From: Notolepis coatsorum
Taxonomy: Eukaryota; Chordata; Actinopteri; Aulopiformes; Paralepididae
DNA length: 64,000 nucleotides
Assembly: GCA_963971535.1 (NCBI GenBank)
Contig: OZ020598.1
Span: 97,605,615 to 97,669,614 of the forward strand
Direction of reading: 5' to 3'
Shown: one piece after another, positions 5,650-64,000 of the stretch
Numbering within the stretch: position 1 is the first letter of the stretch
How the letters are laid out: each line of letters opens with the position of its first letter
The notes under the pieces: generated by a model
The model's input: the letters and a program-made list of their open reading frames with translations, nothing else
What the model was told of the DNA's origin: nothing
Databases searched by the model: none
Translations under genes and position numbers: made by a program

Positions 5650-5671
5650 CCCTTATCTGTCACCATAGTAC

Positions 5672-10400: not shown

Positions 10401-10410
10401 GGTTCAAGAC

Positions 10411-15412: not shown

Positions 15413-15436
15413 CCTGGCATGCTTGTGGGGTGGCTG

Positions 15437-21065: not shown

Positions 21066-21088
21066 GAAGACCTGACCATCAGAATTCC

Positions 21089-24000
21089 ATGGAGGCCATC
21101 ATGGAGATGCTCCGGACGCAGGGAGCAGCCCAGACACGGATGGAGGAACATCAGCAGCTGGTCAGCGCCGAGTTAATCCGACTCAATGGGGTCGTCGGAT
21201 CATCCCAAGCGGTGGCGCAGTCGGCGTTGGCCACAGCTCGACAAGCCCAAGAAGGAGTGGCTGGTGTGCAGTCGGCGGCGGGGGAAGCAGCGCTCCACGC
21301 AGAGGAAAGTCGGGGAGGGTTCGGGGTCCAGGAGCGGTCCCGCGAACCACATCTGCAGGCGCCCGCTCGCTATGACGGATCACCGGATGGTTGTCGGGAA
21401 TTCATCACCCAGTGTCTACTCGTTTTCCGGCTGCAACCACGATCATTTCCATCGGAGACAGCGCAGGTAGCGTATATTATCACACTGCTCACCGGCGAAG
21501 CTCTCTCCTGGGCTACGGCGGAATTAGAGGCAGGGGCGATAATCTGCGACAGTCTGGACGCCTTTACCCGGGAATTGAGAAGAGTATTCGATACTTCCCG
21601 GGTACTCTCGATCTTCGAGGCTGGTGGTCGTCTTCTCGACTGCCGGCAGGGCCTCCGCACTGTCGCAGCTTATGCTATCAAATTTAGGATCTTGGCTCGG
21701 GAGACAGCTTGGGCGGAGAACGTCTGCGTGGTTCTGTTCGTCAGGGGACTCTCAGCGCGGATGCGAGATGCTCTCTCCGCGCGTGAGATCCCCGAGCAGC
21801 TGGAAGTGCTGATCAATACCACCATCAAGATGGATAATCGGCACCGGGAGAGGGAGAAGGAGCATGTCAACAACACCCAGCCCCAGGTATGTTTTCCTTC
21901 TTCTCCTGGTGTTGATAATTCCATGCATTACACAAGTGGGCCACTGGGTGATGAATCCATGCAGCTTGGAGCGCTGTCGCTCTCGGACGACGAGAGGCAG
22001 CGCTTCATCAAAGAGCGACGCTGCTTCCGGTGCGGCCGCACCGGTCACCGCTTCGGCAGCTGTCGGGTCCAGGCTGTATCGGCTCGGCGCCAATCGGGGA
22101 TGGAAGGTGCGCCGTCGGGCCTCGAGAGGGCGCCAGCAGGTGGGCTCATTCCTGCCAAGACCACGGATTCTCGCACATTTTTTGAGGTGGCGATCAACTG
22201 TGGGGGTGACATTAGGGGAACTAAGGCTCTCATTGACTCAGGGGCGGCGGGCAATTTTATTCACGTGGGATTGGTGAAGGAGTGGGGAACCCCGGTGGAG
22301 GACTTAGGGGTTCCCTTACCAGTCTATGCCCTGGACGGTCGGCCCCTGGGCAGTGGGAGCGTCACCCAGCGCACAGTTCCCTTACACATCCGGGTGGAGG
22401 GTGGGGAGTGGGAATGGGTTACTTTTTTTGTCATCTTTTCCCCCTATTCTGTCATGGTGTTGGGTCATCCCTGGTTGTCGTCATGTGTTCGTGTCATTAA
22501 TTGGAGCACGGGCGAACTCTCAACGGCGGCCGACGTCAAGTCGATCGTCAGCGGGAGTTTGCCCAAACCCTTGTCTCCCCCCCCCTCTTCTCTTTTGTCT
22601 CCTCCCTCTTTCTCCAGGATGGTGGGGAGCGTGGCAGATTCTGATCTACCCTCTAATCCCGATTTAATAGGGGTGCCTGAGATCTATTGGGACCTGGCGG
22701 ACGTTTTTAGCAAAACGCGTGCTAAAGCACTTCCGCCTCATAGATCATACGACTGTCCCATTAATCTTCTACCCGGTACCTCCCCGCCTCGCGGGCGAAT
22801 GTTCTCTCTCTCACGCCCCGAAACCTTGGCCATGAACACCTACATAGAGGAGGCATTGCTTGCGGGGCACATACGCCCTTCCACTTCCCCTGCCGGCGCT
22901 GGCTTCTTTTTTGTTGATAAAAAGGATGGGGATCAGCGCCCATGCATTGATTATAGGGGATTGAATGACGTTTCCATCAAGAACCGATATCCTTTACCCC
23001 TCATGGACACGGCCTTTGAGTGCTTACAGGGGGCACAGGTCTTTTCTAAACTTGACTTACGTAATGCATACAACCTGGTCAGGATTAGAGAGGGAGACGA
23101 GTGGAAGACTGCATTTAACACACCCAATGGGCACTATGAGTATTTGGTCATGCCCTTTGGTTTGGCTAATGCTCCGGCAGTCTTCCAAGCCCTGGTTAAC
23201 GACGTGCTGCGAGACTTGATTGGGGTGTCGGTGTTTGTCTACTTAGATGATATCCTGATTTTTTCTCGCGATATGGTGCAACACCAAATGCACGTTCGGG
23301 AGGTGCTAGACCGTCTCCTCAAGCATCAACTATTCGTTAAGGCTGAGAAATGTGTGTTTCACACGGACACTGTGTCCTTCCTGGGCTTTGTGTTGACGAA
23401 GGGCGATCTGCGCATGGATCCAGCCAAGGTGAGTGCAGTTTTGGACTGGCCACGGCCTTCGTCGCTCAAGGGGTTACAACGGTTTTTGGGCTTTGCAAAT
23501 TTTTACAGGCGCTTTATTCGCAATTTTAGCGCCTTAGCCAATCCCTTAACAGCTCTCACTAAGGCCTCTCTCCCTGGCTTTGAATGGTCGCCTAGGGCTG
23601 AGTCGGCCTTCTGCGATCTTAAACGTCGTTTTACATCCGCTCCTGTATTGATCCGCCATGACGCGGAGGTTCCGTTCATTGTGGAGGTGGATGCCTCTGA
23701 CGTCGCGGTGGGGGGGGTGCTCTCTCAGAGATGCTTAAAGGATGGGAAAGTGCACCCGTGTGCTTTTTTTTCTCGCCGTCTGTCACCAGCCGAGCGTAAT
23801 TACGACGTGGGTAATCGGGAGTTATTGGCGATCAAATTGGCACTGGAGGAGTGGAGACATTGGTTGGAGGGGGCGGCACATCCTTTCATTATTTGGACTG
23901 ACCATAAGAACTTGGCTTACATCCAAGGGGCTAAACGCCTTAACGCTCGCCAGGCCAGGTGGACGTTGTTCTTCACACGATTTCGATATACCATCTCCTA

Positions 24001-25486
24001 TAGACCCGGCTCCAAGAATATCAAACCTGACGCGTTGTCGCGCCAGTTTGATCTTCCTGGACGGGAGGAGCAGCCCCATCCCATTATTCCACCGGCCTTG
24101 ATTTTGGCACCCGTGTCTTGGGGCATAGAGAAGGTGGTAAGGTCGGCGCTAACGCGGGAGCCCGATCCTGGTGGGGGTCCTCCGGGACGGTCGTATGTTC
24201 CCAAGGTGGCGCGCTCACGCTTGCTACAGTGGGCACATGCGTCATCCCTCACCAGCCACCCAGGGGCAACCAGGACCCTGGAATTTATCCGTAGGAGGTT
24301 CTGGTGGCCGACAGTGGAGGGGGATACGCGTTCCTTTGTGGCGGCCTGTCCGGTGTGCGCACGTAGTAAGACCTCTCGACGGGCACCGGCGGGTCTCCTC
24401 CGACCACTTCCTATTCCTAAACGACCCTGGTCACACATATCTCTGGACTTTATTTCTGGTCTTCCCCTTTCGGACGGGTTCACCACCATTTTGGTGGTGG
24501 TGGATCGGTTCTCTAAGGCGGCTCACTTTGTCCCTCTCCCCAAGCTTCCTTCGGCCCGGGAGACTGCTGATTTAATTATACAGCATGTCTTTCGGGTCCA
24601 CGGGCTGCCAGTAGATATCGTGTCGGACCGGGGTCCTCAGTTCGCCTCCAGGTTCTGGAAGGCGTTTGCCGCCGGCCTCTGCGCCTCGGTCAGTCTGTCG
24701 TCTGGGTTCCATCCACAGTCGAACGGACAGACGGAGAGGGTCAACCAGGATTTGGAGGGGGTCTTGAGGTGTTACGTTGCCGGTAGTCCGGCAACGTGGA
24801 GTAGGAGGTTGGCTTGGGCTGAGTACGCGCATAATACCCTTCTCTCCTCTTCTACCGGTATGTCTCCCTTTCAGTGCCAGTATGGTTTTCAACCTCCTCT
24901 GTTTCCCGAGCAGGAGCAGGAGGCGGAGGTGCCCTCGGCCCAGGCACATGTGGCTCGCTGTCGCAGGACGTGGAAACAGGTTCGGAAGGCGCTACAGAAG
25001 GTTTCGGTTAGTACCCAACGGCAGGCTAACCGTAAGCGTCGTCCGGCTCCAGTTTACCGTCCAGGGCAGCGGGTTTGGCTTTCCACCCGGGATCTCCCTC
25101 TCCGGGTGGAATCCAAGAAGCTGGCTCCTCGCTTTATAGGACCATTTAAAGTGATTCATCGGGTTAATCCAGTGGCTTACAAGTTACGACTTCCGAGCTC
25201 TATGAGGGTTCATCCGACGTTTCATGTGTCCCTGTTGAAGCCATTCCTCTCATCGCCCTTGGCCCCGCCACTGCCTGTGGTTCTTCCGCCCCGGTTTATT
25301 GGCGGTCAACCCATTTACACGGTGCGGAGGATACTGGGTTGTAGGCGGAGGGGTAGGGGGTTTCAGTTCTTGGTGGATTGGGAGGGGTACGGGATAGAAG
25401 AGCGTTCTTGGGTGCCTCAAAGGGATATTTTAGATCCCAGCCTGATCGTTGATTTCCGGCGGCTGAATCCCGAGGCTCCTAGGTGA
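21089..25486 (+). CDS. Gypsy gag-pol polyprotein with chromodomain
   Basis: 1465 codons in one frame. The first ATG after the LTR (21089) is taken as start; upstream in-frame codons lie in the LTR. Domains: Gag (1 to ~330) with a CCHC knuckle at C312, C315, H320, C325; aspartic protease LIDSGAAG with D383; reverse transcriptase with YLDD at 718-721; RNase H with D868 (VDAS) and D938 (TDHKN); integrase with an HHCC zinc module ending CPVC, and catalytic D1120, D1180, E1216 (35 residues between the last two); C-terminal chromodomain about 1410-1460 ([15 protein letters not shown]). Gag and Pol share one frame, so no frameshift is needed and processing would rely on the protease. No inactivating change was seen. 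Confidence 0.95.
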
Positions 25487-25504
25487 ACGTCTGGTGCCGT
25501 TCGT

Positions 25505-25517
25505 CGGGGGAGGGTAC
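25505..25517 (+). other. Gypsy polypurine tract
   Basis: GGGGGAGGG followed by TAC, immediately before the TGTTACG start of the 3' LTR. The same purine tract + TAC + TG design appears in the element at 55944-62536. Confidence 0.8.
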
Positions 25518-25936
25518 TGTTACGTTCTGGACACCGACCTCGGTCGGTGACCACCCACATTCCTGGCATATGTCACTGGGCTTGTCACCTGTCATTTCCC
25601 TGTCAATTAGTGCTGTCACTTAGGGGTGGTTCCTGACTGGCTGTCACGGGGGTGTGTGTGGAATGTTGGTATTTGGTCTCTATTTAACATACCTCTCTTC
25701 TGCTTGTCCATTGTCAGGTCTTCACTAATTGCGTTCGGGGATAACGCGGACGGTTCTACTGTGGACCTCCAATAAGCTCCCATTTACCTTATCTTACACT
25801 TGTGCTTTTAGCACTTGTTCTCTCTTAGAATTTACTCTGTGTTCTTACTATTAAAGTCGAACCTGTTCAAGAGTAAACACTCTCTGTCTCTGTGATTGCC
25901 TTCAACCATTGGAATTCACCTACCTGCATTCTGACA
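25518..25936 (+). repeat. Gypsy 3' LTR
   Basis: 419 bp from TGTTACGTTCTGG to CATTCTGACA; from 25633 onward identical to the 5' LTR. Confidence 0.9.
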
Positions 25937-43826: not shown

Positions 43827-45093
43827 TGTGGTAAATATTGACGTTGAATTTCATAATTAATATGTGTGAATAAATTAGAGAACCATAAATGTAAAGCCAG
43901 ATGTACCTTTCAATAGCAGAGTGGACTCAGTGGCTAAACAGTCTCAACTGTCAGTTGAGACAGCTGCATCAGATAACAGCTGCAACAGTTATTTCAACCC
44001 CCACTCAAGCAATGACTAAATTAGAGAACAAACGACACCTTCTCGAACTGACTGTATGTAAATGCTGATCAGAGACAGCTGGGTTGACCACAGGGCAGAC
44101 CAGTTTAGACTTGTTGAAGCATGGACACTAACTCACAAACAAAGTAATCGATTAATCAACTGTTTAGTATCAAAAGGTCTCATATGATGTCTGGTATCAG
44201 TCTTGGAAAGCACTGACTGTACTTGGATGATATTAGACATCTATAGCCATACCAAAGGGTTAAAGCGATCATGTCACACCCCCCCTCGTGAGACAAGCCA
44301 GGTCCCTTCATCTCAGCAAAAGATCACACGGACGTGGGCCACCGATGGGCCCCTTCTGTCTCTGTCCCATCAACGTCGCCACAACCCCAAGGGGGGGGCT
44401 GCCAGCGCCCACAAGGACACCCCCCACAAGAGATCAACCCCCACAAGAAGACGCTGGATTGGACCAGCCATATCTATTATTGGCTAGAAATTATAGTATA
44501 TAGGAGGGCCCTAAATGATAATTCGGGAGCTCTCAGGCCGGAACCAAAGGGGGTCTGGGGGCTCCCCCACCGCTTCGAAACCACCCAGAAACAACTGTGA
44601 GCTGATTGCATTTTACGTGAGTAAAATCATGGGAAACACCAATGATTGTTTATAGATTAGAGTAATGTACAGATCCCTGATCTGTAGACCAGATTTACTC
44701 ATGTATAATGTGTACAGTAAACCATGTATGTTCAAATTATGTTAACCAAGTGACTGTTTGATATGCAGTATTTAGGTTTGAGATGCAAACCTGATTGTGA
44801 TATTTCTGTACAACAGACCGCTGTTAATATTCTCTGATCATCTGTTGTATGTAGAAGTCAACCTTCTATTCACCTTGGACTCCTGGCTCTGATCAAATAA
44901 ATCAGCTGAGTTGAAATACAATTCTGGTTTGTCTGGCGTACACGTTTTATTCTTCATCTGCATTAAGCCAGATGTGGAGACCAACCATTCTATCAAGTAT
45001 GAATCTTTCCTCCTCCGTCCAGATAATCAATCTCATTGTATTGTACTACAATAACCTCAAATTATTGTAGAAAGTCTGTGGGATTTTACTACA
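43827..45093 (+). repeat. 5' LTR of the retrovirus-like element
   Basis: Starts TGTGGTAAATATTG, ends TTTTACTACA. A TATA-like TATAGTATATAG lies near 44490 and AATAAA near 44897, giving U3, R and U5 of plausible sizes. A 94-codon frame inside (44203-44487), repeated in the other LTR, is not supported as a gene. Confidence 0.9.
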
Positions 45094-45097
45094 GAAA

Positions 45098-45107
45098 TGG
45101 TGCCGTG
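45098..45107 (+). other. Primer binding site, tRNA-His-like
   Basis: TGGTGCCGTG, four bases after the LTR, equals the complement of the last ten bases of tRNA-His including CCA. Similarity stops after ten bases. Confidence 0.65.
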
Positions 45108-47077
45108 CTGCCCTACCCTTTGTGTCTCCCCCTGGAAAGGTGCGGTAGGGTCTTGTAATATGTATCATATCTGGATCTTGCTGTGTGTTGGGGACACGGG
45201 GCGAAGAGCTGGGGTGTTGCTGCGTTTGAAGTGATTAACGATGGGCTTGTTGTCTGAATGGAGGAGGGAGAGGAGCAGGATGGAGGTTGGTTGTGTACGC
45301 CACTGTTTGGGGCCCGCGGTGAATATGGCGTCTGCATGCAGGGTTGGGGGTTGCGGTGTCTTAGCTTGTGTGTCCGGAGGTATGACGATCGCGCTTGTTG
45401 TGCAGTGAACATGCAAACGTAGGCTTTTTATGTTTGTATGTTCATTCAGACACAGGAGGCCGGTCTCGGCCCAGCGGGCCACGGGGGTTAGTTAACTCGT
45501 ATGGAATATACTTTATGAACTATACGGGGGAGTTGCACCAAGAAGGGTGGTGGCGCACAGACTATCTGGTCATGTTGTAAAGGAAGATAGCGTCGCATGA
45601 CGGCAGGTAAAAGGCTTTTCTTGCTAGGAAGCACGGTTATTCTGTTGTATACGACAGGAGCGCGTTCTGAGTATGTAATTGCCCTAAAATTATTCTCAGG
45701 AAGAGGGCGCAGGTAAGACGAGGAGATTTGACTGTTCTGAAATGGAAGGGGAGCTGGGTCCAAGGTGCATTGTGTCCCTGCTTGTAGCCACAGAATAGGC
45801 GGGACGGGGACCGTGAGTGGGTCAGTATGGGCATAAATGCATCGGGCTAAGGGTTCTGTTACTATTTTAGAACATGTAAAGTCAAGTATGGTGAAGGATT
45901 GTTAGGCCCTGGCATGATCAGCGCAGGGGTCTGTGCGATTGCAGGATTAAAACGTAGTAATTAATGGAAGTGTAGGGTGCCGGCGTGTTCAGGGTGCGTT
46001 GTACGTTCTATGGTAGGATTATAGCACAAATTAAATGTAGATATATTTGCCGTCCTTAGGCATAGTATCCTTTTTAAGCTTGAGCGAAACCGGCCTGTTG
46101 ATTAATTACGTTCGCTGTGATACAAAAACGATTCGGTCGAACTGACTGATAAGTACTTAATGGTTTTGTTATGATATTTTAATGACCAACGGACATATTA
46201 TGTTTGAGGCGAGTCCCTGCTGTTGGTTGGGGCTAGCTGGCTAGCTCTGTGGAAAAGTCCGCTGTGAAGCTGGGGACGTTACGATGACGTTATGAGAGGA
46301 TTGATTAAACACTGTGGCGGCGATTACAAGTAAGAGGCGGTTGAGACGCAGGGTGGCAAAATTGTGGCCGTTTTGAGGGTTATTATTAATGCGGTAACGT
46401 GGTAAATGATATTAAGGATTCGCTGCTTGGTGACGTCATGGTGTTGTGGAGAGTATGTAACGTTCGCGGTGCTATGAAGTGAGGCGGGGAAGGTAGGAGA
46501 AAGGATTCGTGTTGAACTATATGTGCGGCGTTGGTTGGTGTGAGTGTGTTAAAAATTATTTTCTGTTAGAGTGGTTGGTTATTTGAAGCTTGTGTGAATT
46601 GTTTATGCTTTGGATGGTACTGAGCGAATTGCGTGGGTGAACGGATCTTGAAAGGCACGGCTCCCGTGAGGGCCTTGAACGTCGCATTAGAGCTGGCTAA
46701 AGCTAGTTAGCTTGCATGCCGTTGTTTTGTGGCGTTTGGGGCGCGGCATATGTTACGTTTCGAGTTTTGAGAAAGATGTTGGGGAAGGGGTAAAGAAACG
46801 TGATAAATGTCGTGACAGTTTATGAATATCGGGGCATGTTATTATGAATGTCGTGGCAGACCTTGGTTGTCATAGCAACGTTATAACAGCCGCATCGGTT
46901 GCCACTGCGCATGCGCGGTACAACGTGGATTGGGTCTATTCGAAGTAGTTCGCTCAGGGGATAGAGACGGGTAAGAGGATGTTCTGCATTATGTAATATG
47001 GCGGTGTTTGTATATTGTGCATTGTATTTTTGTGTAAGCAGGGGAAGCGGTAACATGTATAGGGATTGATTAGAAAT

Positions 47078-47157
47078 ATGTACAGCTCAATACACACAAT
47101 TGTTGAGGGGATGCAGACCAGAGGAAGACTTTTGTCTTGTTTACATCAGGGTCCCCC
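47078..47157 (-). repeat. R110 copy inside the LTR element
   Basis: Head part of R110, with a ~35-bp continuation (CATACCAGATTTGCAAATTC) that also occurs near 5380. Confidence 0.7.
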
Positions 47158-48510
47158 AGTTTCAATTCATCAGATAGTCAGTCAGTACTGCTACAACTAC
47201 ATACCAGATTTGCAAATTCAGTCACCCGTGTTAAAATTGAGAGTGGCTATGGGCTGAATTTGGAAAATGGCTCTACACTAGAGTTACACAATGCTTGCAG
47301 TAAAATCAATTTATCACATGTGTATGAAGAAAGGAGCATTTAGGACTAACCACTACAAAAGTTATGCTGAGATGGAGGATGCCTACATGTATAATAATTA
47401 GAGTTGATGGACATTTCCAGTTTTTTAATTTGTGTAATGTGTACAATTGTAAGCTTGGAATAATAATGTTGTGTTTTATGTAGCTTGAATTAAGATGCTT
47501 GTATAGAATGCAGTGATGTTGAAATGTCAGATGTTGATACTTGATATAGTTTTAATGACACCATTGATTTAAATAGGATAATGTTTATATTAGTTGCTAA
47601 ATGTTTTATAGTGAAATTTGATACAAGCCCGGTTGTGAAGCAGGATAATTTATGCTTGTTTTAGGTTGTTAAATTTTTAATACACTGTTAATATGGTTAA
47701 GACATGTGTTGATGCTTGTTTTAGATTATTAAATCTTTAATACACGGTTGAAATGTATGATGGTGTACTACGTTTAGACTCTAGGGGACAGCTGCCCCTG
47801 GGGGTTGAAATGTGTGAGTGTTACCCTTTTTGGTGTTTACAGGAGGGCCTAAGGGGGGTCGTGCATACAGCTGTTGTTTACAATGGCTGTTTGTTCTTTT
47901 GTTTACAGGATGGGAGAGATTAGATGCAACAGGATGAGAGAGGTGAAGATGCAGGAGACAGTTGTAGAGTGAGAGAACAGTTGGCAGTTATTTTTATGAC
48001 GGGGGAAATGTTGAGACAGGAAGCGTGCTAATACAGAACACAGCTGGGTGAGTGAGTGAGACAATCAGGGAGGTAGTCGTTCAATGGGATTATGACTTTT
48101 GGAGGGCTAGCTTTTTGGTTAGGGGGAATAGCGGTAGACTCTCAGGGTACTAGGACTGCTTTGAGGTTCTGTCGTTGAGGGAGAGTTCCTAGACTCTCTC
48201 TGGCAGTAGGTAGGAGTGTAGAAATTAAGTGTGAATTGTATTAGCCAGGGATGAGTGTAGCCGGATGAGAGAGTAGAAGAGATGAGCGCAGGGGAACTAA
48301 CCCATTGTCGGTCTGTGGTTGATTAACGAGTGTATGAGAGAGATATATGTTTATAATATGAATGAGTACTGGAGCTCGTAATTTTGGTTGAGCTGGTACA
48401 GATGGTATTTTTTATTTAAATTTAATTTTTGTATGTATGTGTGAGATTGAGATGTCCTTTAGTGAATGATTGAGCGGGGGATGGGGGCAAGGAGGCTTTG
48501 TCTACCCATT

Positions 48511-48640
48511 CACACACAGGCACACACACACACACCCGTTCACATTCACACACACACACACACACACACAGACACGCACACACACACACACACACACAGA
48601 CACACACACACACACACAGGCACACACAGACACACATTCA
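48511..48640. repeat. (CA)n microsatellite, interrupted
   Basis: CA repeats with interspersed CAGG, CAGA and CATT units. Confidence 0.9.
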
Positions 48641-50440
48641 CACAATTTGGTCACACATGCATGCACACACGCAACTTAGCTTTCACTTAAGGTGAGACTA
48701 GTCTTAAAAATAACAAAATGTGTTTAGGTAAGGTGTGTATCGAACCACTTGGGTTATACCATTATCATTTGTTTCATATCATTTGTTTTACTGCATTTGA
48801 TTTGATTTCTGTTGAATGTTTTGTAGGGATGAGGTATTGAATTTAAATTTTTAGATTTCTTTTCTATTTTTATCTATGATTGTGTGGCCTGAATGGGTGT
48901 GAATGGAGCCTGTAGAGGGTGATTGTGCTGGCTTGAAAGGTGTCAAAATCACAATGACAGATGTGATGAGGTTTGGATGTAGGGTTTTAGATTTCTTTTC
49001 TTTTCTTTTTTAATAACCATTGAGGTGGTCTACATGTGAGATCTGTTGGAATGTTTTTTTGATTATTTGCCTTTTGTTTGTTGTTTCTCTGTCATGATCT
49101 GGGGAGAGGACGGTTGGAGCGTGAGATACATTGGATCAGATCAATGGCAGTTAAGTGGTCCCATTACGTTTTGCATAATGATTAACCATTTGGCGTCTCT
49201 TGAGAAATATTTGACATATTGTATAAGGAAAATTTGTTCTGTGTTTTTGTTCCCTTGCAGTTCAGTCGGAGAGGGAGGATGGACCATCACAAGTGGGGGG
49301 ATCATGGGGAAAATGTGTAGGAATACATTTCATTAGATTAGGACACGATGGTGTGACCCGTTCAGTCAGTTCCTGTGGGAGATTGTTGGATTATGAAGAG
49401 AGGTCGCTTGGGACTCTACCCCTCCTTCAATATAGCCCCAAATACAAAGGCCGGAGGTTGAGACATACCTCCAGACTGACGGAGTCGTTCGTCTGTAGAT
49501 CCATGGAAATACAGTCATGGGACAGAATATGACGAGGTCCAGGCCTAAAAACAGTGGCTTCAGCTGAGGCTGGCCGACATGGGGTGGAGGGGGGGGGGGG
49601 CGAAAACGGTCGGAGACTGTGCAACCAAAGCGTTGAACAAGGGCCTCTGTGTGATTGATTGGTGTGTTGGACGGGAAGTGACTGAACGGTAACAACTGGT
49701 ATAGATTATGACACAACGCAAGAGTACTAAACTAAACACATACACATAGGTAGAGTAAAAAGTAAGGTGTAGGTTATGGCCGACATGGTGACAATTTTTT
49801 TTCCCCTTGCGTGGTGCTCCGCCCTCCCTGTCCGTCTGTGCGCAGAGGTGGTAAGGTTTATGTCCATAGGGATGTTCATAAAAGGGGGGAGAGGTGAGAA
49901 GACCAACTGAGTTGATTGTGCAAAATGTGATTGGGCTGACTTGGAAAAAGAATTAACAGGAGAGGAGAAGCAAAATGTATGAAAGAATGAAGAATAATCT
50001 CTGTGTCTCCACAGATCATGTCAACGGATACCATAATTTAAAAAAAAAATTGTGTTTTACTTTAATGTGTAATGTTTAGATTACATTGTTTTAATTGTTT
50101 TCAACAAATAAGCCTCTGGCTGTGAGCCCAGAGGAACAAAGCCTGATGATAGTAGGTGGTAAACACTGTTTCATTAAGGCAGAATAGGTTAATTGGGGAG
50201 CTGGATGAATGGGTCACCAGGATTCCCCGGGAGGGGGCCATAGTCAGGGGAATGTGGGGGAGAAAAGAAGAAGACAAGAAAAAACTCATTGATGATATGT
50301 ACCAAAGAATAATGGAAAAAAAATGTGAGAAAAAAGAAAAAATTGAGAAATTTGAAAAAAAAAGATTTTTATTATTATATTGTATGGTTGGTATGTATAG
50401 AAAATCAAGTCAATATACAGTATGTGACAATGAGAATTGT

Positions 50441-50453
50441 CAAAGTGGGGAAA
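50441..50453 (+). other. Polypurine tract of the retrovirus-like element
   Basis: AAAGTGGGGAAA directly before the 3' LTR start, the usual retroviral place. Confidence 0.75.
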
Positions 50454-51713
50454 TGTGGTAAATATTGACGTTGAATTTCATAATTAATATGTGTGAATAA
50501 ATTAGAGAACCATAAATGTAAAGCCAGATGTACCTTTCAATAGCAGAGTGGACTCAGTGGCTAAACAGTCTCAACTGTCAGTTGAGACAGCTGCATCAGA
50601 TAACAGCTGCAACAGTTATTTCAACCCCCACTCAAGCAATGACTAAATTAGAGAACAAACGACACCTTCTCGAACTGACTGTATGTAAATGCTGATCAGA
50701 GACAGCTGGGTTGACCACAGGGCAGACCAGTTTAGACTTGTTGAAGCATGGACACTAACTCACAAACAAAGTAATCGATTAATCAACTGTTTAGTATCAA
50801 AAGGTCTCATATGATGTCTGGTATCAGTCTTGGAAAGCACTGACTGTACTTGGATGATATTAGACATCTATAGCCATACCAAAGGGTTAAAGCGATCATG
50901 TCACACCCCCCCTCGTGAGACAAGCCAGGTCCCTTCATCTCAGCAAAAGATCACACGGACGTGGGCCACCGATGGGCCCCTTCTGTCTCTGTCCCATCAA
51001 CGTCGCCACAACCCCAAGGGGGGGGCTGCCAGCGCCCACAAGGACACCCCCCACAAGAGATCAACCCCCACAAGAAGACGCTGGATTGGACCAGCCATAT
51101 CTATTATTGGCTAGAAATTATAGTATATAGGAGGGCCCTAAATGATAATTCGGGAGCTCTCAGGCCGGAACCAAAGGGGGTCTGGGGGCTCCCCCACCGC
51201 TTCGAAACCACCCAGAAACAACTGTGAGCTGATTGCATTTTACGTGAGTAAAATCATGGGAAACACCAATGATTGTTTATAGATTAGAGTAATGTACAGA
51301 TCCCTGATCTGTAGACCAGATTTACTCATGTATAATGTGTACAGTAAACCATGTATGTTCAAATTATGTTAACCAAGTGACTGTTTGATATGCAGTATTT
51401 AGGTTTGAGATGCAAACCTGATTGTGATATTTCTGTACAACAGACAGCTGTTAATATTCTCTGATCATCTTTTGTATGTAGAAGTCAACCTTTTATTCAC
51501 CCCTGGCTCTGATCAAATAAATCAGCTGAGTTGAACTACAATTCTGGTTTGTCTGGCGTACACGTTTTATTCTTCATCTGCATTAAGCCAGATGTGGAGA
51601 CCAACCATTCTATCAAGTATGAATCTTTCCTCCTCCGTCCAGATAATCAATCTCATTGTATTGTACTACAATAACCTCAAATTATTGTAGAAAGTCTGTG
51701 GGATTTTACTACA
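50454..51713 (+). repeat. 3' LTR of the retrovirus-like element
   Basis: Same as the 5' LTR except for a few substitutions and one 7-bp indel seen near 51443-51535, so a recent insertion. Confidence 0.9.
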
Positions 51714-54640: not shown

Positions 54641-54796
54641 CCATATGTATCGAAAATGTATTTGATTACAAATGACAATTGAGTACATATTCGTATTCAA
54701 AATAAGTACATACAGTACATTACATATTTATTTCAGCTACTGCACAATGATAATGGGTTCTGCCAGACGTTTCTCCTGCGCTGTCAGGGAGCGTGC

Positions 54797-55481
54797 CTAT
54801 GTTCCTACAGCCCTATGTTCCCACAGCCCTATGTTCCTACAGCCCTATGTTCCCACAGCCCTATGTTCCTACAGCCCTATGTTCCTACAGCCCTATGTTC
54901 CTACAGCCCTATGTTCCTACAGCCCTATGTTCCTACAGCCCTATGTTACCACAGCCCTATGTTCCCACAGCTCTATGTTCCCACAGCCCTATGTTCCCAC
55001 AGCCCTATGTTCCTACAGCCCTATGTTCCCACAGCCCTATGTTCCCACAGCCCTATGTTCCTACAGCCCTATGTTACCACAGCCCTATGTTCCCACAGCT
55101 CTATGTTCCCACAGCCCTATGTTCCCACAGCCCTATGTTCCTACAGCCCTATGTTCCCACAGCCCTATGTTCCCACAGCCCTATGTTCCTACAGCCCTAT
55201 GTTCCCACAGCCCTATGTTCCTACAGCCCTATGTTCCCACAGCCCTATGTTCCCACAGCCCTATGTTCCTACAGCCCTATGTTCCCACAGCCCTATGTTC
55301 CCACAGCCCTATGTTCCCACAGCCCTACGTTCCCACATCCCTATGTTCCCACAGCCCTACTGTATGTTCCTACAGCCCTATGTTCCCACAGCACTATGTT
55401 TTCACATCCCAATGGTCGCACAGCCCTATGTTCCTACAAGCCCTATGTTCCCACAGGACTATGTTCCTACAGGACTATGTT
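54797..55481. repeat. 16-bp minisatellite, block 1
   Basis: About 43 units of TGTTCC(C/T)ACAGCCCTA. Because 16 is not a multiple of 3, all three frames read the same PYVPTALCSHSPMF-type peptide; long frames here are not genes. Confidence 0.97.
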
Positions 55482-55943
55482 TCTATTTTAATTAGCAGGG
55501 CTGCTAGTTTTCAGTTGTAGTCCCTGGGCTAGATGTTTAAGCCAGAAAAGAAACAAATAAATAGAAGAAACAGAAAGCTAATATAAAAACAATTTTAAAC
55601 ATATTCTGTACATTCACTCACTATGCACTCATGCATCTATAAAAACATTGTATACAGGGACAAATCAAAGCCCATACATGGACAAGCACTGTATAGGCAG
55701 GCACACATATACACAATCAGGACAGTCAGGCTAGTGGGCAAGCATACGGGGGTTGGGCAGCTGGATTGTGACGTGACTCGCTAATGGTCACAGACCTGAT
55801 TTTCGATCAGCCATGCTTTGAGTGTGTGTGTGAAGGACCTGAGTGTATCAGTACTGCGGATGTGTGGTGGGATGGTGTTCCAGCTCTAATCGAGAAGGCT
55901 GATTTACTAAATGCGCTTTTCCTCTCTGGGATGATGACATTTC
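55482..55943. repeat. Spacer unit of the higher-order repeat, copy 1
   Basis: Starts after the minisatellite (AGCAGGGCTGCTAGTTTTCA) and is repeated at 63303-63764 with very high identity. The LTR element inserted at its end. Confidence 0.9.
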
Positions 55944-56754
55944 TGTTATGGTTTGTAACCGACCCCAATCGCACAACACAAGACAGGTATGATGGTTTGC
56001 CAAGAAACAGATATTTATTGAACAACAGGGAAAAACAGGGAAAAGGGCACTGTCCCTTTAAGGGAGAATCACAAATACAGGAATATAATATGAGGGGAAG
56101 GAAAGGTGCCTTTAAGAGGCGGGCAGGAAAAGGGAACACTAAGGGAAGGTAAGGGAACGCCTAAGGGAAGGTTAAGGGAACGCCTTGGGACAGAGGAACT
56201 AGAGACTAGGTAAACAAGGGACAAGGAGAACTAGGGATAGAGGACTAGGGACTAGGAGAACTAGGGATCAGGAGAAACGGGGACTAGGGGAACTAGGGAC
56301 AAGGAACTAGGTGGAACTAGAAGGGGAGAACTTGGGACCAGGAACTAGGTGGAACTAGAAGGGGAGAACTAGGGAACAGGAACTAGGTGGAACTAGAAAG
56401 GGGAGAACTAGGGAACAGAGGGGACTGAGGCCCGCGGAGGCGGGCTGGGAAACAGGGAGGAACTGGGAGGACTGGTGGAAATCATCTGGGCCGCTCTGCA
56501 GGACAGAGGAGAGAGTTAATGCACAAAAGGGAAAAAACAGAGCAGGTGCAGAACAGCCCAAATAACAAAGTGAACAAAGTAATAATATCTTCGTGTGACA
56601 AACACACAGGGGGAGATGTAAAGTCCAAAAATACTATTCTAAGTGAGAACCAAAAAACAGAGGCATTACGCTGGGAGATGAAATGTCCAAACTAACTAAC
56701 AGAGGCAATACGCTGGGAGATGAAATGTCCAAACTAACTAACAGAGGCAATACG

Positions 56755-57185
56755 CTGGGAGAGTGACATCACAATCAAAACTCACCCAGGCGTATGCGTA
56801 AAGGTACAGGAACAGCAGCGGGAACGGGGGCAAGGACACTACGCTGGGTGAGTGACATCACAATCAAAACTCACCCAGGCGTGTGCGTAATGGTACGGGG
56901 ACAGCAACGGGAACGGGGGCAAGGACACTACGCTGGGTGAGTGACATCACAATCAAAACTCACCCAGGCGTGTGCGTAATGGTACGGGGACAGCAACGGG
57001 AACGGGGGCAAGGACACTACGCTGGGTGAGTGACATCACAATCAAAACTCACCCAGGCGTGTGCGTAATGGTACGGGGACAGCAACGGGGCGAGGGCAAG
57101 GACACTACGCTGGGTGAGTGACATCACAATCAAAACTCACCCAGGCGTGTGCGTAATGGTACGGGGACAGCAACGGGGCGAGGGC
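56755..57185. repeat. 89-bp tandem array in LTR
   Basis: About five units containing ACGCTGGGTGAGTGACATCA and CACCCAGGCGTGTGCGTAAT. Repeated at 60655-61085. Confidence 0.9.
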
Positions 57186-57745
57186 ATCGCCACCAGGTGG
57201 CTGGCTGTCCGAGCCGAGGAACAGAGCGCTGGAACAGTGGCGGTGACGAGGGCATCGTCCACCGGGTAGCCGCTGTCGGAGCCGAGGAACAGAGTGCTGG
57301 AACAGTGGCGGTGACGAGGGCATCGTCCACCGGGTAGCCGCTGTCGGAGCCGAGGAACAGAGTGCGCGCCACACCTTGGTGTGCGCGTCGGAACAGGGAG
57401 CTGGAAACAGTGGCGGTGGCGAGGATGTCGTCCACCGGGTAGCCACTGTCGGAGCCGAGGAACAGAGTGCGCGCCACACCTTGGTGTGCGCGTCGGAACA
57501 GGGAGCTGGAACAGTGGCGGTGGCGAGGATGTCGTCCACCGGGTAGCCACTGTCGGAGCCGAGGAACAGAGTGCGCGCCACACCTTGGTGTGCGCGTCGG
57601 AACAGTGGCGGTGGCGAGAGCGTCGTCCACCGGGTAGCCGCTGTCGGAGCCGAGGAACAGAGTGCGCGCCACACCTTGGTGTGCGCGTCGGGACAGTGGC
57701 GGTGGCGAGAGCGTCGTCCACCGGGTAGCCGCTGTCGGAACCGAG
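57185..57745. repeat. GC-rich tandem array in LTR
   Basis: Six units of 69-105 bp containing CACCGGGTAGCC and TGTCGGAGCCGAGGAACAGA. Repeated at 61085-61645. One base (57194 A, 61094 G) is the only LTR difference I saw. Confidence 0.9.
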
Positions 57746-57774
57746 AGACGCCTCGGGGTGCGTCTGCGAGGAGG

Positions 57775-58130
57775 AGTGTGCCAAGCTCGAAGGTCTGGAA
57801 GATGCGCGTCAGTGCGCTGGTACGGAGGAGCGTGCCAAGCTCGAGGGTCCGGGAGATGCGCGTCTGTGCGCTGGAACGGAGGAGCGTGCCAAGCTCGAGG
57901 GTCCGGGAGATGCGCGTCAGTGCGCTGGAACGGAGGAGCGTGCCAAGCTCGAGGGTCCGGGAGATGCGCGTCAGTGCGCTGGAACGGAGGAGCGTGCCAA
58001 GCTCGAGGGTCCGGGAGATGCGCGTCAGTGCGCTGGAACGGAGGAGCGTGCCAAGCTCGAGGGTCCGGGAGATGCGCGTCAGTGCGCTGGAACGGAGGAG
58101 CGTGCCAAGCTCGAGGGTCCGGGAGATGCG
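57775..58130. repeat. 54-bp tandem array in LTR
   Basis: Seven units with CCAAGCTCGAGGGTCCGGGA. 54 is 18 codons, so a long plus-strand frame stays open, but it is antisense to the element. Repeated at 61675-62030. Confidence 0.9.
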
Positions 58131-58636
58131 CGTTGGTCTAGATGTGCGTCAGGACGAACAGCTGCGCTGGGGTCTGCAGTGGAACGCTGAGGTGCCTCCC
58201 GTGGAAGTTACAGGGAGCGCAGAACAGTCTCCTCCACAGGCTACGGCGACAGCAGACGAAGGCTGGAGCAAACATCTCAAGGCTGGAGAGGTCCATCTTA
58301 CAGCATTGGTAGACCAGAGGATCTCCCGAAAAGAGTCTAGATGTTAGGAATATGACTCGGCATGAATACAACACGACCCCACGCCAAAACGAGGGGAAGC
58401 GCCCTGGTATTTAAAGCCCACAGGGGGACTAATTAGCCTGCCACCACAGGTGCGAGAGATAATAGAATATCAAACAGGTGTGGCCACTAAGGGTAAAGAA
58501 CGAGAGGGTGGGGGCTAGAGAGAGTGAGTAGGGAATTCCTAACAGTAGGCTTAAAGAAGACAGAGAATAGGGAATTCCTAACAGTAGGCTTAAAGAAGAC
58601 AGAGAAAAGGTAGTGAGCAGCGGGCAAAACCTCACA

Positions 58637-59843
58637 GTATCCCCCCCTCCAACGGGAGCCACCCGGCGACCCAAAACAAATACAGACAGAGAGGCAGGGG
58701 CAAAACAAGACGGTACTGGCCAAGCCAGCAGGGGAAGCCACCACAAGAGTGGGGCTAGCAAAAGAAACAGGGTCGCCGAGGGGTAACTAGGGTAGCAGAG
58801 GGGCAACTGGGGGAACTGGTCTAGAGGAACTGGGTCTAGAGAACTGGTCTAGAGAACTGGTCTAGAGAACTGGGCTAGAGAACCGGGCTAGAGAACTGGT
58901 CTAGAGAACTGGTTTAGAGAACTGGTCTAGAGAACTGGTCTAGAGGAACTGGGTCTAGAGAACTGAGGGGCAAGCAGGGTAGCAAAAGGGGTAACCATGG
59001 TAGCACCGGGAAAAGGGCTAGCAGAGGGAAGGTTAGCTGCCAGGGCACTGACAGCTACAGGGCCTATGCTAGCTGTACTGCTACATCAACATAGAGGCTG
59101 CGCAAGCTGCCGGAGCTAGGCTAGCAGAGGGAAAGGGTAGCTGCCAGGGCACTGATAGCTACAGGGCCTATGCTAGCTGTACTGCTACATCAACATAGAG
59201 GCTGCGCTAGCTGCCGGAGCTAGGCTGGCAGACAGGGCTGGACCAGCATGAGAGAACAAGCTAGCTGGAAGGACAGTCCTAGCTGTGTGAGATAAACTAC
59301 ACAAAAAAGTGGAGGCCATGCAGAGGGACCAGGTTAGCTGCTTGGGCCTGGCTAGCTACAGGGCCTATGCCAGCTGCAAGGCTGCATTAACATAGAGGCA
59401 GTGCTAACAGCCGGGGCCAAGCTAGCAGGCCGGGGCCATGCAGAGGGAAACTGGGTTAGCCGCCAGGGCATGGCTAGCTACAGGGCCTATGCCAGCAGCA
59501 AGGGCTGCATAAACATAGAGGCTGTGCTAGCAGCCGGGGCTAAGCTAGCAGACAGGGGCTCTGCTGAGGGACTGGGTTAGCTGCCAGGGCATGGCTAGCT
59601 ACAGGGGGGTCAAACAGGGCAAAACGGGAAGCAAACAGGGGAGCTAACCGGGGAGACTAACAAGCTAAACAGGGGAGTAACAGGCTAACAAGGGAGCTAA
59701 ACAGGACTAACAAGGAAGCTAAACTGGGCTAACAGGGAAGCTAACAGGGCTAACAGGGGAGCTAGAGGGAACAAGAAAAAAAAAGGCAAACTCAACATAC
59801 ACCGTCTGTGCTGGCTGGGGTCGTAGACTTGGTGGGGTCGTAC
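58637..59843 (-). other. Interior of the non-autonomous element
   Basis: 1,207 bp of repetitive, non-coding sequence: TCTAGAGAACTGG repeats (58810-58960) and units of about 60-150 bp with GCTAGCTACAGGGCCTATGC. Purine tract at the right side in element sense (GGAGGGGGGGATAC). No primer site recognised after CCATAACA. Confidence 0.8.
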
Positions 59844-62536
59844 TGTTATGGTTTGTAACCGACCCCAATCGCACAACACAAGACAGGTATGATGGTTTGC
59901 CAAGAAACAGATATTTATTGAACAACAGGGAAAAACAGGGAAAAGGGCACTGTCCCTTTAAGGGAGAATCACAAATACAGGAATATAATATGAGGGGAAG
60001 GAAAGGTGCCTTTAAGAGGCGGGCAGGAAAAGGGAACACTAAGGGAAGGTAAGGGAACGCCTAAGGGAAGGTTAAGGGAACGCCTTGGGACAGAGGAACT
60101 AGAGACTAGGTAAACAAGGGACAAGGAGAACTAGGGATAGAGGACTAGGGACTAGGAGAACTAGGGATCAGGAGAAACGGGGACTAGGGGAACTAGGGAC
60201 AAGGAACTAGGTGGAACTAGAAGGGGAGAACTTGGGACCAGGAACTAGGTGGAACTAGAAGGGGAGAACTAGGGAACAGGAACTAGGTGGAACTAGAAAG
60301 GGGAGAACTAGGGAACAGAGGGGACTGAGGCCCGCGGAGGCGGGCTGGGAAACAGGGAGGAACTGGGAGGACTGGTGGAAATCATCTGGGCCGCTCTGCA
60401 GGACAGAGGAGAGAGTTAATGCACAAAAGGGAAAAAACAGAGCAGGTGCAGAACAGCCCAAATAACAAAGTGAACAAAGTAATAATATCTTCGTGTGACA
60501 AACACACAGGGGGAGATGTAAAGTCCAAAAATACTATTCTAAGTGAGAACCAAAAAACAGAGGCATTACGCTGGGAGATGAAATGTCCAAACTAACTAAC
60601 AGAGGCAATACGCTGGGAGATGAAATGTCCAAACTAACTAACAGAGGCAATACGCTGGGAGAGTGACATCACAATCAAAACTCACCCAGGCGTATGCGTA
60701 AAGGTACAGGAACAGCAGCGGGAACGGGGGCAAGGACACTACGCTGGGTGAGTGACATCACAATCAAAACTCACCCAGGCGTGTGCGTAATGGTACGGGG
60801 ACAGCAACGGGAACGGGGGCAAGGACACTACGCTGGGTGAGTGACATCACAATCAAAACTCACCCAGGCGTGTGCGTAATGGTACGGGGACAGCAACGGG
60901 AACGGGGGCAAGGACACTACGCTGGGTGAGTGACATCACAATCAAAACTCACCCAGGCGTGTGCGTAATGGTACGGGGACAGCAACGGGGCGAGGGCAAG
61001 GACACTACGCTGGGTGAGTGACATCACAATCAAAACTCACCCAGGCGTGTGCGTAATGGTACGGGGACAGCAACGGGGCGAGGGCATCGCCACCGGGTGG
61101 CTGGCTGTCCGAGCCGAGGAACAGAGCGCTGGAACAGTGGCGGTGACGAGGGCATCGTCCACCGGGTAGCCGCTGTCGGAGCCGAGGAACAGAGTGCTGG
61201 AACAGTGGCGGTGACGAGGGCATCGTCCACCGGGTAGCCGCTGTCGGAGCCGAGGAACAGAGTGCGCGCCACACCTTGGTGTGCGCGTCGGAACAGGGAG
61301 CTGGAAACAGTGGCGGTGGCGAGGATGTCGTCCACCGGGTAGCCACTGTCGGAGCCGAGGAACAGAGTGCGCGCCACACCTTGGTGTGCGCGTCGGAACA
61401 GGGAGCTGGAACAGTGGCGGTGGCGAGGATGTCGTCCACCGGGTAGCCACTGTCGGAGCCGAGGAACAGAGTGCGCGCCACACCTTGGTGTGCGCGTCGG
61501 AACAGTGGCGGTGGCGAGAGCGTCGTCCACCGGGTAGCCGCTGTCGGAGCCGAGGAACAGAGTGCGCGCCACACCTTGGTGTGCGCGTCGGGACAGTGGC
61601 GGTGGCGAGAGCGTCGTCCACCGGGTAGCCGCTGTCGGAACCGAGAGACGCCTCGGGGTGCGTCTGCGAGGAGGAGTGTGCCAAGCTCGAAGGTCTGGAA
61701 GATGCGCGTCAGTGCGCTGGTACGGAGGAGCGTGCCAAGCTCGAGGGTCCGGGAGATGCGCGTCTGTGCGCTGGAACGGAGGAGCGTGCCAAGCTCGAGG
61801 GTCCGGGAGATGCGCGTCAGTGCGCTGGAACGGAGGAGCGTGCCAAGCTCGAGGGTCCGGGAGATGCGCGTCAGTGCGCTGGAACGGAGGAGCGTGCCAA
61901 GCTCGAGGGTCCGGGAGATGCGCGTCAGTGCGCTGGAACGGAGGAGCGTGCCAAGCTCGAGGGTCCGGGAGATGCGCGTCAGTGCGCTGGAACGGAGGAG
62001 CGTGCCAAGCTCGAGGGTCCGGGAGATGCGCGTTGGTCTAGATGTGCGTCAGGACGAACAGCTGCGCTGGGGTCTGCAGTGGAACGCTGAGGTGCCTCCC
62101 GTGGAAGTTACAGGGAGCGCAGAACAGTCTCCTCCACAGGCTACGGCGACAGCAGACGAAGGCTGGAGCAAACATCTCAAGGCTGGAGAGGTCCATCTTA
62201 CAGCATTGGTAGACCAGAGGATCTCCCGAAAAGAGTCTAGATGTTAGGAATATGACTCGGCATGAATACAACACGACCCCACGCCAAAACGAGGGGAAGC
62301 GCCCTGGTATTTAAAGCCCACAGGGGGACTAATTAGCCTGCCACCACAGGTGCGAGAGATAATAGAATATCAAACAGGTGTGGCCACTAAGGGTAAAGAA
62401 CGAGAGGGTGGGGGCTAGAGAGAGTGAGTAGGGAATTCCTAACAGTAGGCTTAAAGAAGACAGAGAATAGGGAATTCCTAACAGTAGGCTTAAAGAAGAC
62501 AGAGAAAAGGTAGTGAGCAGCGGGCAAAACCTCACA
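59844..62536 (-). repeat. 2,693-bp LTR, upstream copy in element orientation
   Basis: Same length as the other LTR and identical apart from one base seen. Confidence 0.9.
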
Positions 62537-62589
62537 ATTTCCCTCTATTACTGTTCTGGTGAACCTGCTGCTTTCTGTTAAGAACTGTG
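62537..62589. repeat. End of spacer unit, copy 1, after the insertion
   Basis: CCTCTATTACTGTTCTGGTG to AAGAACTG continues spacer copy 1 and equals 63765-63809. Confidence 0.85.
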
Positions 62590-63302
62590 TTCCTACAACC
62601 CTATGCTCCTATATGACTATGTTCCTACAGGACTATGTTCCCACAGCCCTATGTTCCTATAGCCCTATGTTCCTACAGCCCTATGTTCCTACAGCCCTAT
62701 GTTCCCACAGCCCTATGTTCCTACAGGACTATGTTCCCACAGCCCTATGTTCCTATAGCCCTATGTTCCCACAGCCCTATGTTCCTATAGCCCTATGTTC
62801 CCACAGCCCTATGTTCCTATAGCCCTATGTTCCTACAGCCCTATGTTCCTATAGCCCTATGTTCCCACAGCCCTATGTTCCTATAGCCCTATGTTCCTAC
62901 AGCCCTATGTTCCTATAGCCCTATGTTCCTACAGCCCTATGTTCCTATAGCCCTATGTTCCCACAGCCCTACTGTATGTTCCTACAGCCCTATGTTCCTA
63001 TAGCCCTATGTTCCCACAGCCCTACTGTATGTTCCTACAGCCCTATGTTCCCACAGCCCTATGTTCCCATAGCCCTATGTTCCCACATCCCAATGGTCGC
63101 ACAGCCCTATGTTCCCACAGCCCTATGTTCCCACAGCCCTACTGTATGTTCCTACAGCCCTATGTTCCCACAGCCCTACTGTATGTTCCTACAGCCCTAT
63201 GTTCCCACAGCCCTATGTTCCCACATCCCAATGGTCGCACAGCCCTATGTTCCTACAAGCCCTATGTTCCCACAGGACTATGTTCCTACAGGACTATGTT
63301 CC
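62590..63302. repeat. 16-bp minisatellite, block 2
   Basis: Same unit as block 1, with more TATAG variants and several CTACTGTATG units of altered length. Confidence 0.95.
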
Positions 63303-63809
63303 TATTTTAATTAGCAGGGCTGCTAGTTTTCAGTTGTAGTCCCTGGGCTAGATGTTTAAGCCAGAAAAGAAACAAATAAATAGAAGAAACAGAAAGCTAA
63401 TATAAAAACAATTTTAAACATATTCTGTACATTCACTCACTATGCACTCATGCATCTATAAAAACATTGTATACAGGGACAAATCAAAGCCCATACATGG
63501 ACAAGCACTGTATAGGCAGGCACACATATACACAATCAGGACAGTCAGGCTAGTGGGCAAGCATACGGGGGTTGGGCAGCTGGATTGTGACGTGACTCGC
63601 TAATGGTCACAGACCTGATTTTCGATCAGCCATGCTTTGAGTGTGTGTGTGAAGGACCTGAGTGTATCAGTACTGCGGATGTGTGGTGGGATGGTGTTCC
63701 AGCTCTAATCGAGAAGGCTGATTTACTAAATGCGCTTTTCCTCTCTGGGATGATGACATTTCCCTCTATTACTGTTCTGGTGAACCTGCTGCTTTCTGTT
63801 AAGAACTGT
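63303..63809. repeat. Spacer unit, copy 2, with empty target site
   Basis: Equals 55482-55943 joined to 62542-62589, with a single ATTTC at about 63759-63763 where copy 1 has the LTR element. Confidence 0.9.
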
Positions 63810-64000
63810 GTTCCTACAGCCCTATGCTCCTATATGACTATGTTCCTACAGGACTATGTTCCCACAGCCCTATGTTCCTATAGCCCTATGTTCCTACAGC
63901 CCTATGTTCCTACAGCCCTATGTTCCCACAGCCCTATGTTCCTACAGGACTATGTTCCCACAGCCCTATGTTCCTATAGCCCTATGTTCCCACAGCCCTA
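63810..64000. repeat. 16-bp minisatellite, block 3 (continues past the window)
   Basis: Starts with the same irregular first units as block 2, offset 1,221 bp, and runs off the window end. Confidence 0.95.

What the first reader, a model, noticed from the sequence alone, without database searches (positions are those of the whole stretch)
55944..62536. Non-autonomous Gypsy-like element with 2,693-bp LTRs and a 1.2-kb interior
Direct repeats of equal length bounded by TG/CA, ATTTC duplication, purine tract + TAC + TG as in the intact Gypsy, AATAAA near the LTR end. LTRs make up over 80% of the element and contain three tandem arrays. One base difference was seen, so insertion is very recent. 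Promoter-to-poly(A) spacing implies an R region over 2 kb.
Basis: partly seen in the sequence, partly recalled or inferred. Interest (0 to 1): 0.75.

Follow-up and report, generated by a model that had tools for sequence, protein, structure and literature searches.

The report
Self-priming non-coding LTR mobile element
This is a real, very young mobile DNA element from a fish-like genome that codes for no recognised protein, seems to start its own DNA copying with the front end of its RNA, and appears to have swapped a large repeat-filled piece with related copies.

Summary
In detail: 2,693-bp direct repeats (one mismatch), TG/CA ends, ATTTC duplication, 1,207-bp non-coding interior. A neighbouring unit of the local repeat preserves the empty site (559/560). 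The element lies on the minus strand. The family is large: 1,919 exact LTR-end/PBS junctions in the host assembly; the window and 19 of 20 fetched copies could be assessed, and all 20 have matching 5-bp duplications.

New here: (1) the first interior bases pair with LTR bases 255-266, 33 nt after the TATA-like box: the geometry of Tf1/sushi self-priming, shared by this window's Gypsy. This second line of evidence for the RNA start makes R about 2.4 kb, nearly 90% of the LTR. (2) The window copy is mosaic: start of R from one lineage, interior from another; L028 switches inside R. (3) R arrays differ in length between the two LTRs in 8 of 20 copies. (4) Solo LTRs occur; junction spacing suggests shared-LTR tandems.

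Best reading: a LARD-like parasite of a sushi-type Gypsy, spread by self-primed reverse transcription with template switching in R. No autonomous partner was found (100 of 1,919 junctions read). A 2-kb R has a rice precedent. New variant of a known kind.

The parts
55944..62536 (-). whole element, minus strand, 6,593 bp
   Evidence: LTR pair, TSD, empty site; orientation from PBS/self-primer, purine tract, TATA and AATAAA order
59844..62536 (-). 5' LTR (2,693 bp)
55944..58636 (-). 3' LTR (2,693 bp)
58637..59843 (-). non-coding interior, 1,207 bp, longest stop-free stretch 74 codons in six frames
62537..62541 (.). target-site duplication ATTTC, copy beyond the 5' LTR
55939..55943 (.). target-site duplication ATTTC, copy beyond the 3' LTR
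62283..62536 (-). predicted U3 of 5' LTR (LTR 1-254); TATA-like TTTAAATA at 62308-62315
62271..62282 (-). self-primer, predicted RNA 5' end (LTR 255-266)
   Evidence: 12 pairs (10 Watson-Crick, 2 G-U) with the first 12 interior nt
59832..59843 (-). PBS, interior nt 1-12; perfect 10-nt core 59832-59841 after a GT spacer
   Evidence: in 100 junctions chosen by a pattern that fixes the core and leaves the spacer free, the spacer was GT in 100 of 100
59892..62282 (-). predicted R of 5' LTR, about 2.39 kb, with tandem arrays; 3' limit approximate
   Evidence: self-primer plus the only AATAAA of the LTR
59914..59919 (-). AATAAA of 5' LTR (copy at 56014-56019 in 3' LTR), GT-rich stretch downstream
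58637..58650 (-). purine-rich tract plus TAC directly before the 3' LTR
62036..62282 (-). non-array first part of R ('lead'), haplotype A
63758..63762 (.). unoccupied ATTTC target in the neighbouring paralogous unit (aligned over 63302-63861)

Best explanation
A non-autonomous, LARD-like LTR retrotransposon family of a ray-finned-fish-like genome, most likely mobilised by proteins of a Tf1/sushi-type Gypsy. RNA starts at LTR base ~255, and its first ~10-12 nt fold back onto the PBS next to the 5' LTR and prime minus-strand DNA. That DNA copies U5 and a ~2.4-kb R and is transferred to R at the 3' end of the same or a co-packaged RNA. Transfer between RNAs, and jumps inside R, swap R segments between lineages and change array lengths; later LTR-LTR exchange or tandem insertion gives solo LTRs and shared-LTR tandems. 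Shown by sequence: borders, duplications, empty site, primer/PBS match and its position, family, mosaics, array length changes, solo LTRs. Inferred: RNA start and end, actual self-priming, the helper, the tandems (spacing only), and reverse transcription rather than gene conversion as the source of the mosaics.
For: Insertion. Family: 40 scored matches to the interior, the window's own included (39 full length at 95-100%; 40 scored of 2,233 candidates); 1,919 junctions, backward-pattern control 0; window plus 19 assessable copies, 20 of 20 with equal 5-bp TSDs. Self-priming: 12 pairs at interior nt 1, 33 nt after TTTAAATA; whole-LTR shuffles 0 of 1,000; shuffles of LTR 226-300, 4 of 20,000; of 1,195 interior 12-mers only the true one matches LTR 226-300; the window Gypsy shows 11 perfect pairs from interior nt 1, 32 nt after TATTTAA. 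The third LTR element of the window gave at most 8 pairs (5 Watson-Crick) in its likely sense and 10 (7) in the other. Mosaics: window and L019 have 45 of 45 A-sites in the R lead and 44 of 44 B-sites in the interior (41 of these 44 in one indel-rich stretch); L028 switches inside the lead; four-gamete conflicts lead/mid 36 of 56 site pairs, mid/tail 2 of 2. LTR lengths unequal in 8 of 20 copies, two by exact tandem copies of 37 and 458 bp. Solo LTRs: 4 of 8 type-A loci without a listed partner. Same-strand neighbour junctions 3.4-4.0 kb apart: 9 pairs among 100.
Against: No autonomous partner: 100 of 100 junctions read (of 1,919; 233 nt each) lead into the same non-coding family, and the pattern for deviating interiors did not complete. 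Weaker controls: without the position constraint, 6 of 1,187 interior positions find 12 pairs somewhere in the LTR, and one other interior 10-mer (nt 1178) has a perfect complement elsewhere in the LTR. The 5' terminus TGTGAGG misses the published sushi motif TGTYANR by one letter. Primer and PBS are almost invariant, so covariation could not be tested. No RNA data. Primer and PBS would lie ~2.4 kb apart in the RNA, against ~0.22 kb in the window Gypsy. The mosaic sets were picked by similarity to the window (interior or lead), the type-A interiors are only two complete ones, U3 has one diagnostic site, and U3 itself shows four-gamete conflicts (4 of 6 pairs), so some conflicts may be repeated mutation or misalignment.
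Confidence: 0.75

Rival explanations
1. Non-autonomous element of another Gypsy lineage (e.g. rGmr1-like) primed by a tRNA or tRNA fragment; the LTR/PBS match is accidental.
For: The 5' terminus TGTGAGG fits the rGmr1 motif TGTNANR better than the sushi one (motifs in a passage of PMC3601003); no host tRNA set was tested; 6 of 1,187 interior positions pair somewhere in the LTR.
Against: No TGG in the first 12 interior nt in either orientation (read); position and shuffle tests; the 3' terminus CATAACA fits sushi CNTNACA, not rGmr1 CGTNACA.
Confidence: 0.12
2. R is short: another start near the poly(A) site makes the functional RNA, and the long array block is U3.
For: No RNA data; a TATA-like box is weak evidence.
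Against: Of the hexamers scanned in the LTR (AATAAA, ATTAAA, AGTAAA, TATAAA, TTTAAA) only TTTAAA at 222 and AATAAA at 2618 occur; the self-primer sits 33 nt after the former.
Confidence: 0.12
3. The R mosaics come from gene conversion or crossing-over between genomic copies, not from reverse transcription.
For: Solo LTRs, and junction spacing that suggests tandems, show or suggest LTR recombination; many near-identical copies exist.
Against: The two LTRs of the window copy and of L019 agree over their length, with 1 and 0 substitutions, although their R lead is of the other lineage; conversion of one LTR would make them differ.
Confidence: 0.2
4. Assembly artefact (collapsed or duplicated arrays).
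For: Array lengths are hard to assemble; one fetched copy (L026) runs into N.
Against: TSD, empty site, consistent copies in different places.
Confidence: 0.02

Closest known systems
Tf1/sushi group of Ty3/gypsy (Tf1, Tj1, sushi-ichi); self-priming
   Same: PBS complementary to the predicted 5' end of the element's own RNA; purine tract; AATAAA close to the LTR end as in the published sushi LTR model; 5-bp TSD (that this is usual for the group is recalled)
   Different: no recognised coding sequence; R ~2.4 kb with arrays; LTR several times that of Tf1 (Tf1 size recalled)
LARDs (large retrotransposon derivatives, described in plants)
   Same: over 4 kb, paired LTRs, PBS and purine tract, non-coding, abundant, presumed trans-mobilised
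   Different: fish-like host, self-primer, interior shorter than the LTR
TRIMs (plants; PbTRIM in ant, EmTRIM in Echinococcus, biv-TRIM in bivalves)
   Same: non-autonomous, LTRs around a short interior
   Different: 6.6 kb instead of up to 4 kb (limit from PMC6696364); LTR 2.7 kb
Retrosat2 (rice Gypsy)
   Same: annotated R of 2,023 bp within a long LTR (passage)
   Different: encodes transposition enzymes, plant, ~1-kb U5; how its R limits were set I did not check
Cassandra arrays and plant tandem LTR elements
   Same: LTR-interior-LTR-interior-LTR tandems
   Different: plant families; here inferred from junction spacing only
Gypsy at 20762-25936 of this window
   Same: self-primer at interior nt 1, TATA-to-primer 32 nt vs 33, purine tract + TAC + TG
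   Different: codes gag-pol with chromodomain; LTR 419 bp; only short chance DNA matches to the element

Membership tests
LTR retrotransposon | paired LTRs with TG...CA ends and a fixed-length TSD | tested here: met
   (window and 19 assessable of 20 fetched copies, 5 bp in each)
LTR retrotransposon | purine tract before 3' LTR and PBS after 5' LTR | tested here: met
   PBS of the self-priming kind
Tf1/sushi group | self-priming: PBS complementary to RNA 5' end | tested here: met
   in sequence and position only; the RNA end is predicted, not mapped
Tf1/sushi group | reverse transcriptase/integrase phylogeny, chromodomain | not testable with these tools
   no frame over 74 codons in the interior; LTR frames without Pfam match above cut-off
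Tf1/sushi group | terminal motifs TGTYANR...CNTNACA (PMC3601003) | tested here: inconclusive
   3' end fits, 5' end TGTGAGG misses one letter
LARD | longer than 4 kb, LTRs, no coding capacity | tested here: met
   6,593 bp; interior frames at most 74 codons; LTR frames of up to 347 codons are repeats without family match
LARD | mobilised in trans by an autonomous partner | tested here: inconclusive
   partner not seen at 100 of 1,919 junctions
[quoted passage not shown]
   6,593 bp; limit from PMC6696364

The most novel reading that the evidence does not exclude
R is an exchangeable module: a ~2.4-kb block of structured arrays that works in cis (RNA folding that brings the primer to a PBS 2.4 kb away, dimerisation or packaging), is passed between lineages at minus-strand transfer, and is the part by which copies compete for the helper's proteins.
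Probability: 0.2. Interest if true: 0.75.

Novelty: new variant of a known kind. Interest (0 to 1): 0.5.

Why it matters
It is a natural, recent and abundant case in which self-priming, an R of over 2 kb and probable template switching can be read from sequence. The two R lineages and the array lengths act as built-in markers for counting strand transfers per insertion. It also raises a testable problem: the 5' LTR carries AATAAA and a GT-rich stretch about 2.36 kb after the predicted start, too far for proximity to the promoter to hide it, so many transcripts may end inside the 5' LTR (inference).

Tried and rejected
tRNA-type PBS: no TGG in the first 12 interior nt in either orientation (read); ARAGORN found no tRNA gene in the window; no host tRNA set was compared. 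Ribozymes or known RNAs (retrozyme idea): no Rfam match at gathering score in 64 kb. Coding R: stop-free frames of 347, 335, 223 (minus) and 266 codons (plus) exist, but Pfam gave only matches below the curated cut-offs, and the protein search with the 347-codon frame found none at E <= 0.001 among the 7,994 candidates scored. Viral collection: 0 exact matches for two LTR patterns. R hairpins: two array stretches fold better than 100 of 100 shuffles each (z -4.75 and -3.90), while the R lead folds no better than shuffles (z +1.09; 177 of 200 at least as good); the units show no compensatory pair changes, so a function of the folds is not shown. TSD check: two copies (L019, L022) seemed to lack matching TSDs because my borders were wrong (U3 repeat differences); with borders read again they match. 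L026 was left out of the TSD and LTR counts because its 3' LTR runs into N. Autonomous partner: not found.

Papers. Passages: PMC6934838, PMC6317226, PMC4600332, PMC3601003 (sections 12 and 13 whole), PMC3485330, PMC7215508, PMC6696364. Abstract and outline: PMC11899658. Search listing and start of abstract only: PbTRIM (PMC3532108), EmTRIM (PMC4558846). Not held: PMC1369541, PMC1207896. Facts on integrase trimming and on Tf1 size and TSD length are recalled.
Full report
What is there. Two direct repeats of 2,693 bp (55944-58636, 59844-62536) differ at one base and enclose 1,207 bp; ATTTC stands on both outer sides. The flanks belong to a local large repeat (16-bp arrays plus ~0.5 kb). The next unit (aligned over 63302-63861) still has the unoccupied site: left flank plus right flank, one ATTTC left out, matches it at 559 of 560 positions. 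The insertion border is therefore shown inside the window.

Orientation and signals. Read on the minus strand, the 5' LTR (62536 to 59844) has TTTAAATA at LTR 222-229 and one AATAAA at 2618-2623, followed by a GT-rich stretch; the interior ends GGAGGGGGGGATAC before the 3' LTR. No tRNA-type TGG is present in the first 12 interior nt in either orientation. Instead interior nt 1-12 pair with LTR 255-266 (10 Watson-Crick and 2 G-U pairs; the inner ten, after a GT spacer, are perfect), 33 nt after the TATA-like box. No dinucleotide shuffle of the whole LTR reached this (0 of 1,000), 4 of 20,000 shuffles of LTR 226-300 did, and of 1,195 interior 12-mers only the true one matches that region. Without the position constraint the match is less special: 6 of 1,187 interior positions find 12 pairs somewhere in the LTR, and one other interior 10-mer has a perfect complement elsewhere in it. 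The Gypsy of this window, whose frame carries reverse transcriptase, RNase H, integrase, Tf2-type SH3 and chromodomain, has the same layout: 11 perfect pairs from interior nt 1 to a site 32 nt after TATTTAA. The third LTR element (43827-51713) gave at most 8 pairs (5 Watson-Crick) in its likely sense and 10 (7) in the other. [quoted passage not shown] The bases just outside the LTRs, AC before and GT after, mirror each other, as expected if integrase trims two nt from each DNA end; this last point is inference from recalled knowledge.

Long R. The primer gives the RNA start by a second line of evidence. From there to AATAAA+15 is 2,167-2,985 nt in 40 LTRs of 20 copies, median 2,328.5. The R sizes quoted in PMC3601003 (section 13) are 10-150 bp. 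Rice Retrosat2 has an annotated R of 2,023 bp (passage of PMC3485330), so a 2-kb R is rare but not unheard of. My nine paper searches, several with capped lists (for example 15 of 188, 12 of 114 and 10 of 232 papers shown), listed no title on a fish element of this kind; the library lacks most subscription journals, so this is no proof of novelty.

Family. In the 3.42-Gb host assembly the interior gave 40 scored matches, the window's own included, 39 of them full length at 95-100% (2,233 candidates). I fetched 20 of the others, chosen among the closest to the window's interior, so their youth is biased. The window and 19 assessable copies (L026 not) all have equal 5-bp TSDs, LTRs of 2,437-3,294 bp and 0-5 LTR substitutions, 37 in 52,892 aligned positions. 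The PBS 12-mer is intact in 19 of these 20 (L018 differs) and the primer in 39 of 40 LTRs (3' LTR of L025 differs). The LTR-end/PBS junction occurs 1,919 times exactly. For the first 100 listed, all on contig C1, I read 233 nt of interior each: the spacer is GT in 100 of 100 and the interior is the same family in 100 of 100 (88 with at least 150 bp aligned, 12 with the first 111-117 nt at 92-97%).

Mosaics. The first 240 nt of R come in two forms about 13% apart. Of 20 copies, 17 are type B, two (window, L019) type A, and L028 reads 31 B-sites, then 9 A-sites, then 5 end sites (4 B, 1 neither). The window's lead is identical to that of eight type-A LTRs, but these were picked from matches that were 100% identical to it. 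Its interior differs from the nearest type-B copies by 4 of 1,207 and from the two complete interiors of type-A copies by 26 and 35 sites plus gaps; 44 of 44 interior diagnostic positions are B, of which 41 lie in one indel-rich stretch. Thus the window copy joins a lead found with diverged interiors to an interior found mostly with the other lead. Four-gamete conflicts occur between lead and mid R (36 of 56 site pairs), mid and tail (2 of 2), lead and tail (2 of 28), lead and interior (30 of 140), mid and interior (4 of 10), tail and interior (3 of 5), within the lead (7 of 378) and within the interior (1 of 10); U3 also conflicts with itself (4 of 6) and with the other segments, where misalignment of L022 or repeated mutation is likely. 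Such exchange is what template switching between two packaged RNAs would give; that the two LTRs of the window copy and of L019 agree (1 and 0 substitutions) argues against later conversion of one LTR.

Array instability and structure. LTR lengths differ within 8 of 20 copies (by 1, 6, 7, 37, 53, 72, 90 and 458 bp). The 37- and 458-bp differences are exact tandem copies; the 1-, 6- and 7-bp ones need not be array units. Stretches with 89-bp and 91/104-bp units carry hairpins and fold better than shuffles, the R lead does not, and there is no covariation. Of eight type-A loci without a listed partner, four are solo LTRs with TSDs and four belong to the same non-coding family. Among 100 listed junctions, nine same-strand neighbour pairs lie 3,398-3,960 bp apart, the spacing of LTR-interior-LTR-interior-LTR tandems (the stretches between were not read), as known for Cassandra and plant Gypsy elements (PMC7215508 passages, PMC11899658 abstract).

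Mechanism, shown and inferred. Shown: insertion, family, primer/PBS complementarity in the right place, mosaics, array changes, solo LTRs. Inferred: RNA ends, self-priming itself, helper proteins of a sushi-type Gypsy, template switching, tandems.

Verdict. A well-supported, very young, abundant, probably self-primed LARD-like family with an exceptionally long, mosaic, array-filled R. The kind is known; I found no description of the combination in the searches made.

Noticed in passing
43827-51713: Second LTR element without long frames: LTRs 1,267 and 1,260 bp (99.1% identical), 5,360-bp interior with no stop-free frame over 137 codons, TGG 4 nt inside the interior, CATG on both outer sides.
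   Followed up: partly
20762-25936: The Gypsy called intact lacks the first 115 bp of its 5' LTR; its gag-pol-chromodomain frame is open over 1,500 codons and it has an 11-bp self-primer.
   Followed up: partly
54796-64000: Large local repeat: 16-bp TGTTCC arrays plus ~0.5 kb other sequence; joined flanks of the element match the next unit at 559 of 560 positions.
   Followed up: partly
host contig C1:7282352-7960221: Six PBS junctions on one strand at steps of about 135-136 kb: perhaps a 135-kb tandem segmental duplication with one element per unit (places; not read further than 240 nt each).
   Followed up: no
10410-10717 and 17052-17165: Arrays of nearly the same 30-bp unit (one base apart, different phase) on both sides of a coding region at 12272-16333 minus that looks LINE-like (my reading, no family search).
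   Followed up: no
758-1233 and 5671-6174: Inverted repeat, about 0.5 kb, 88.6% identical.
   Followed up: no
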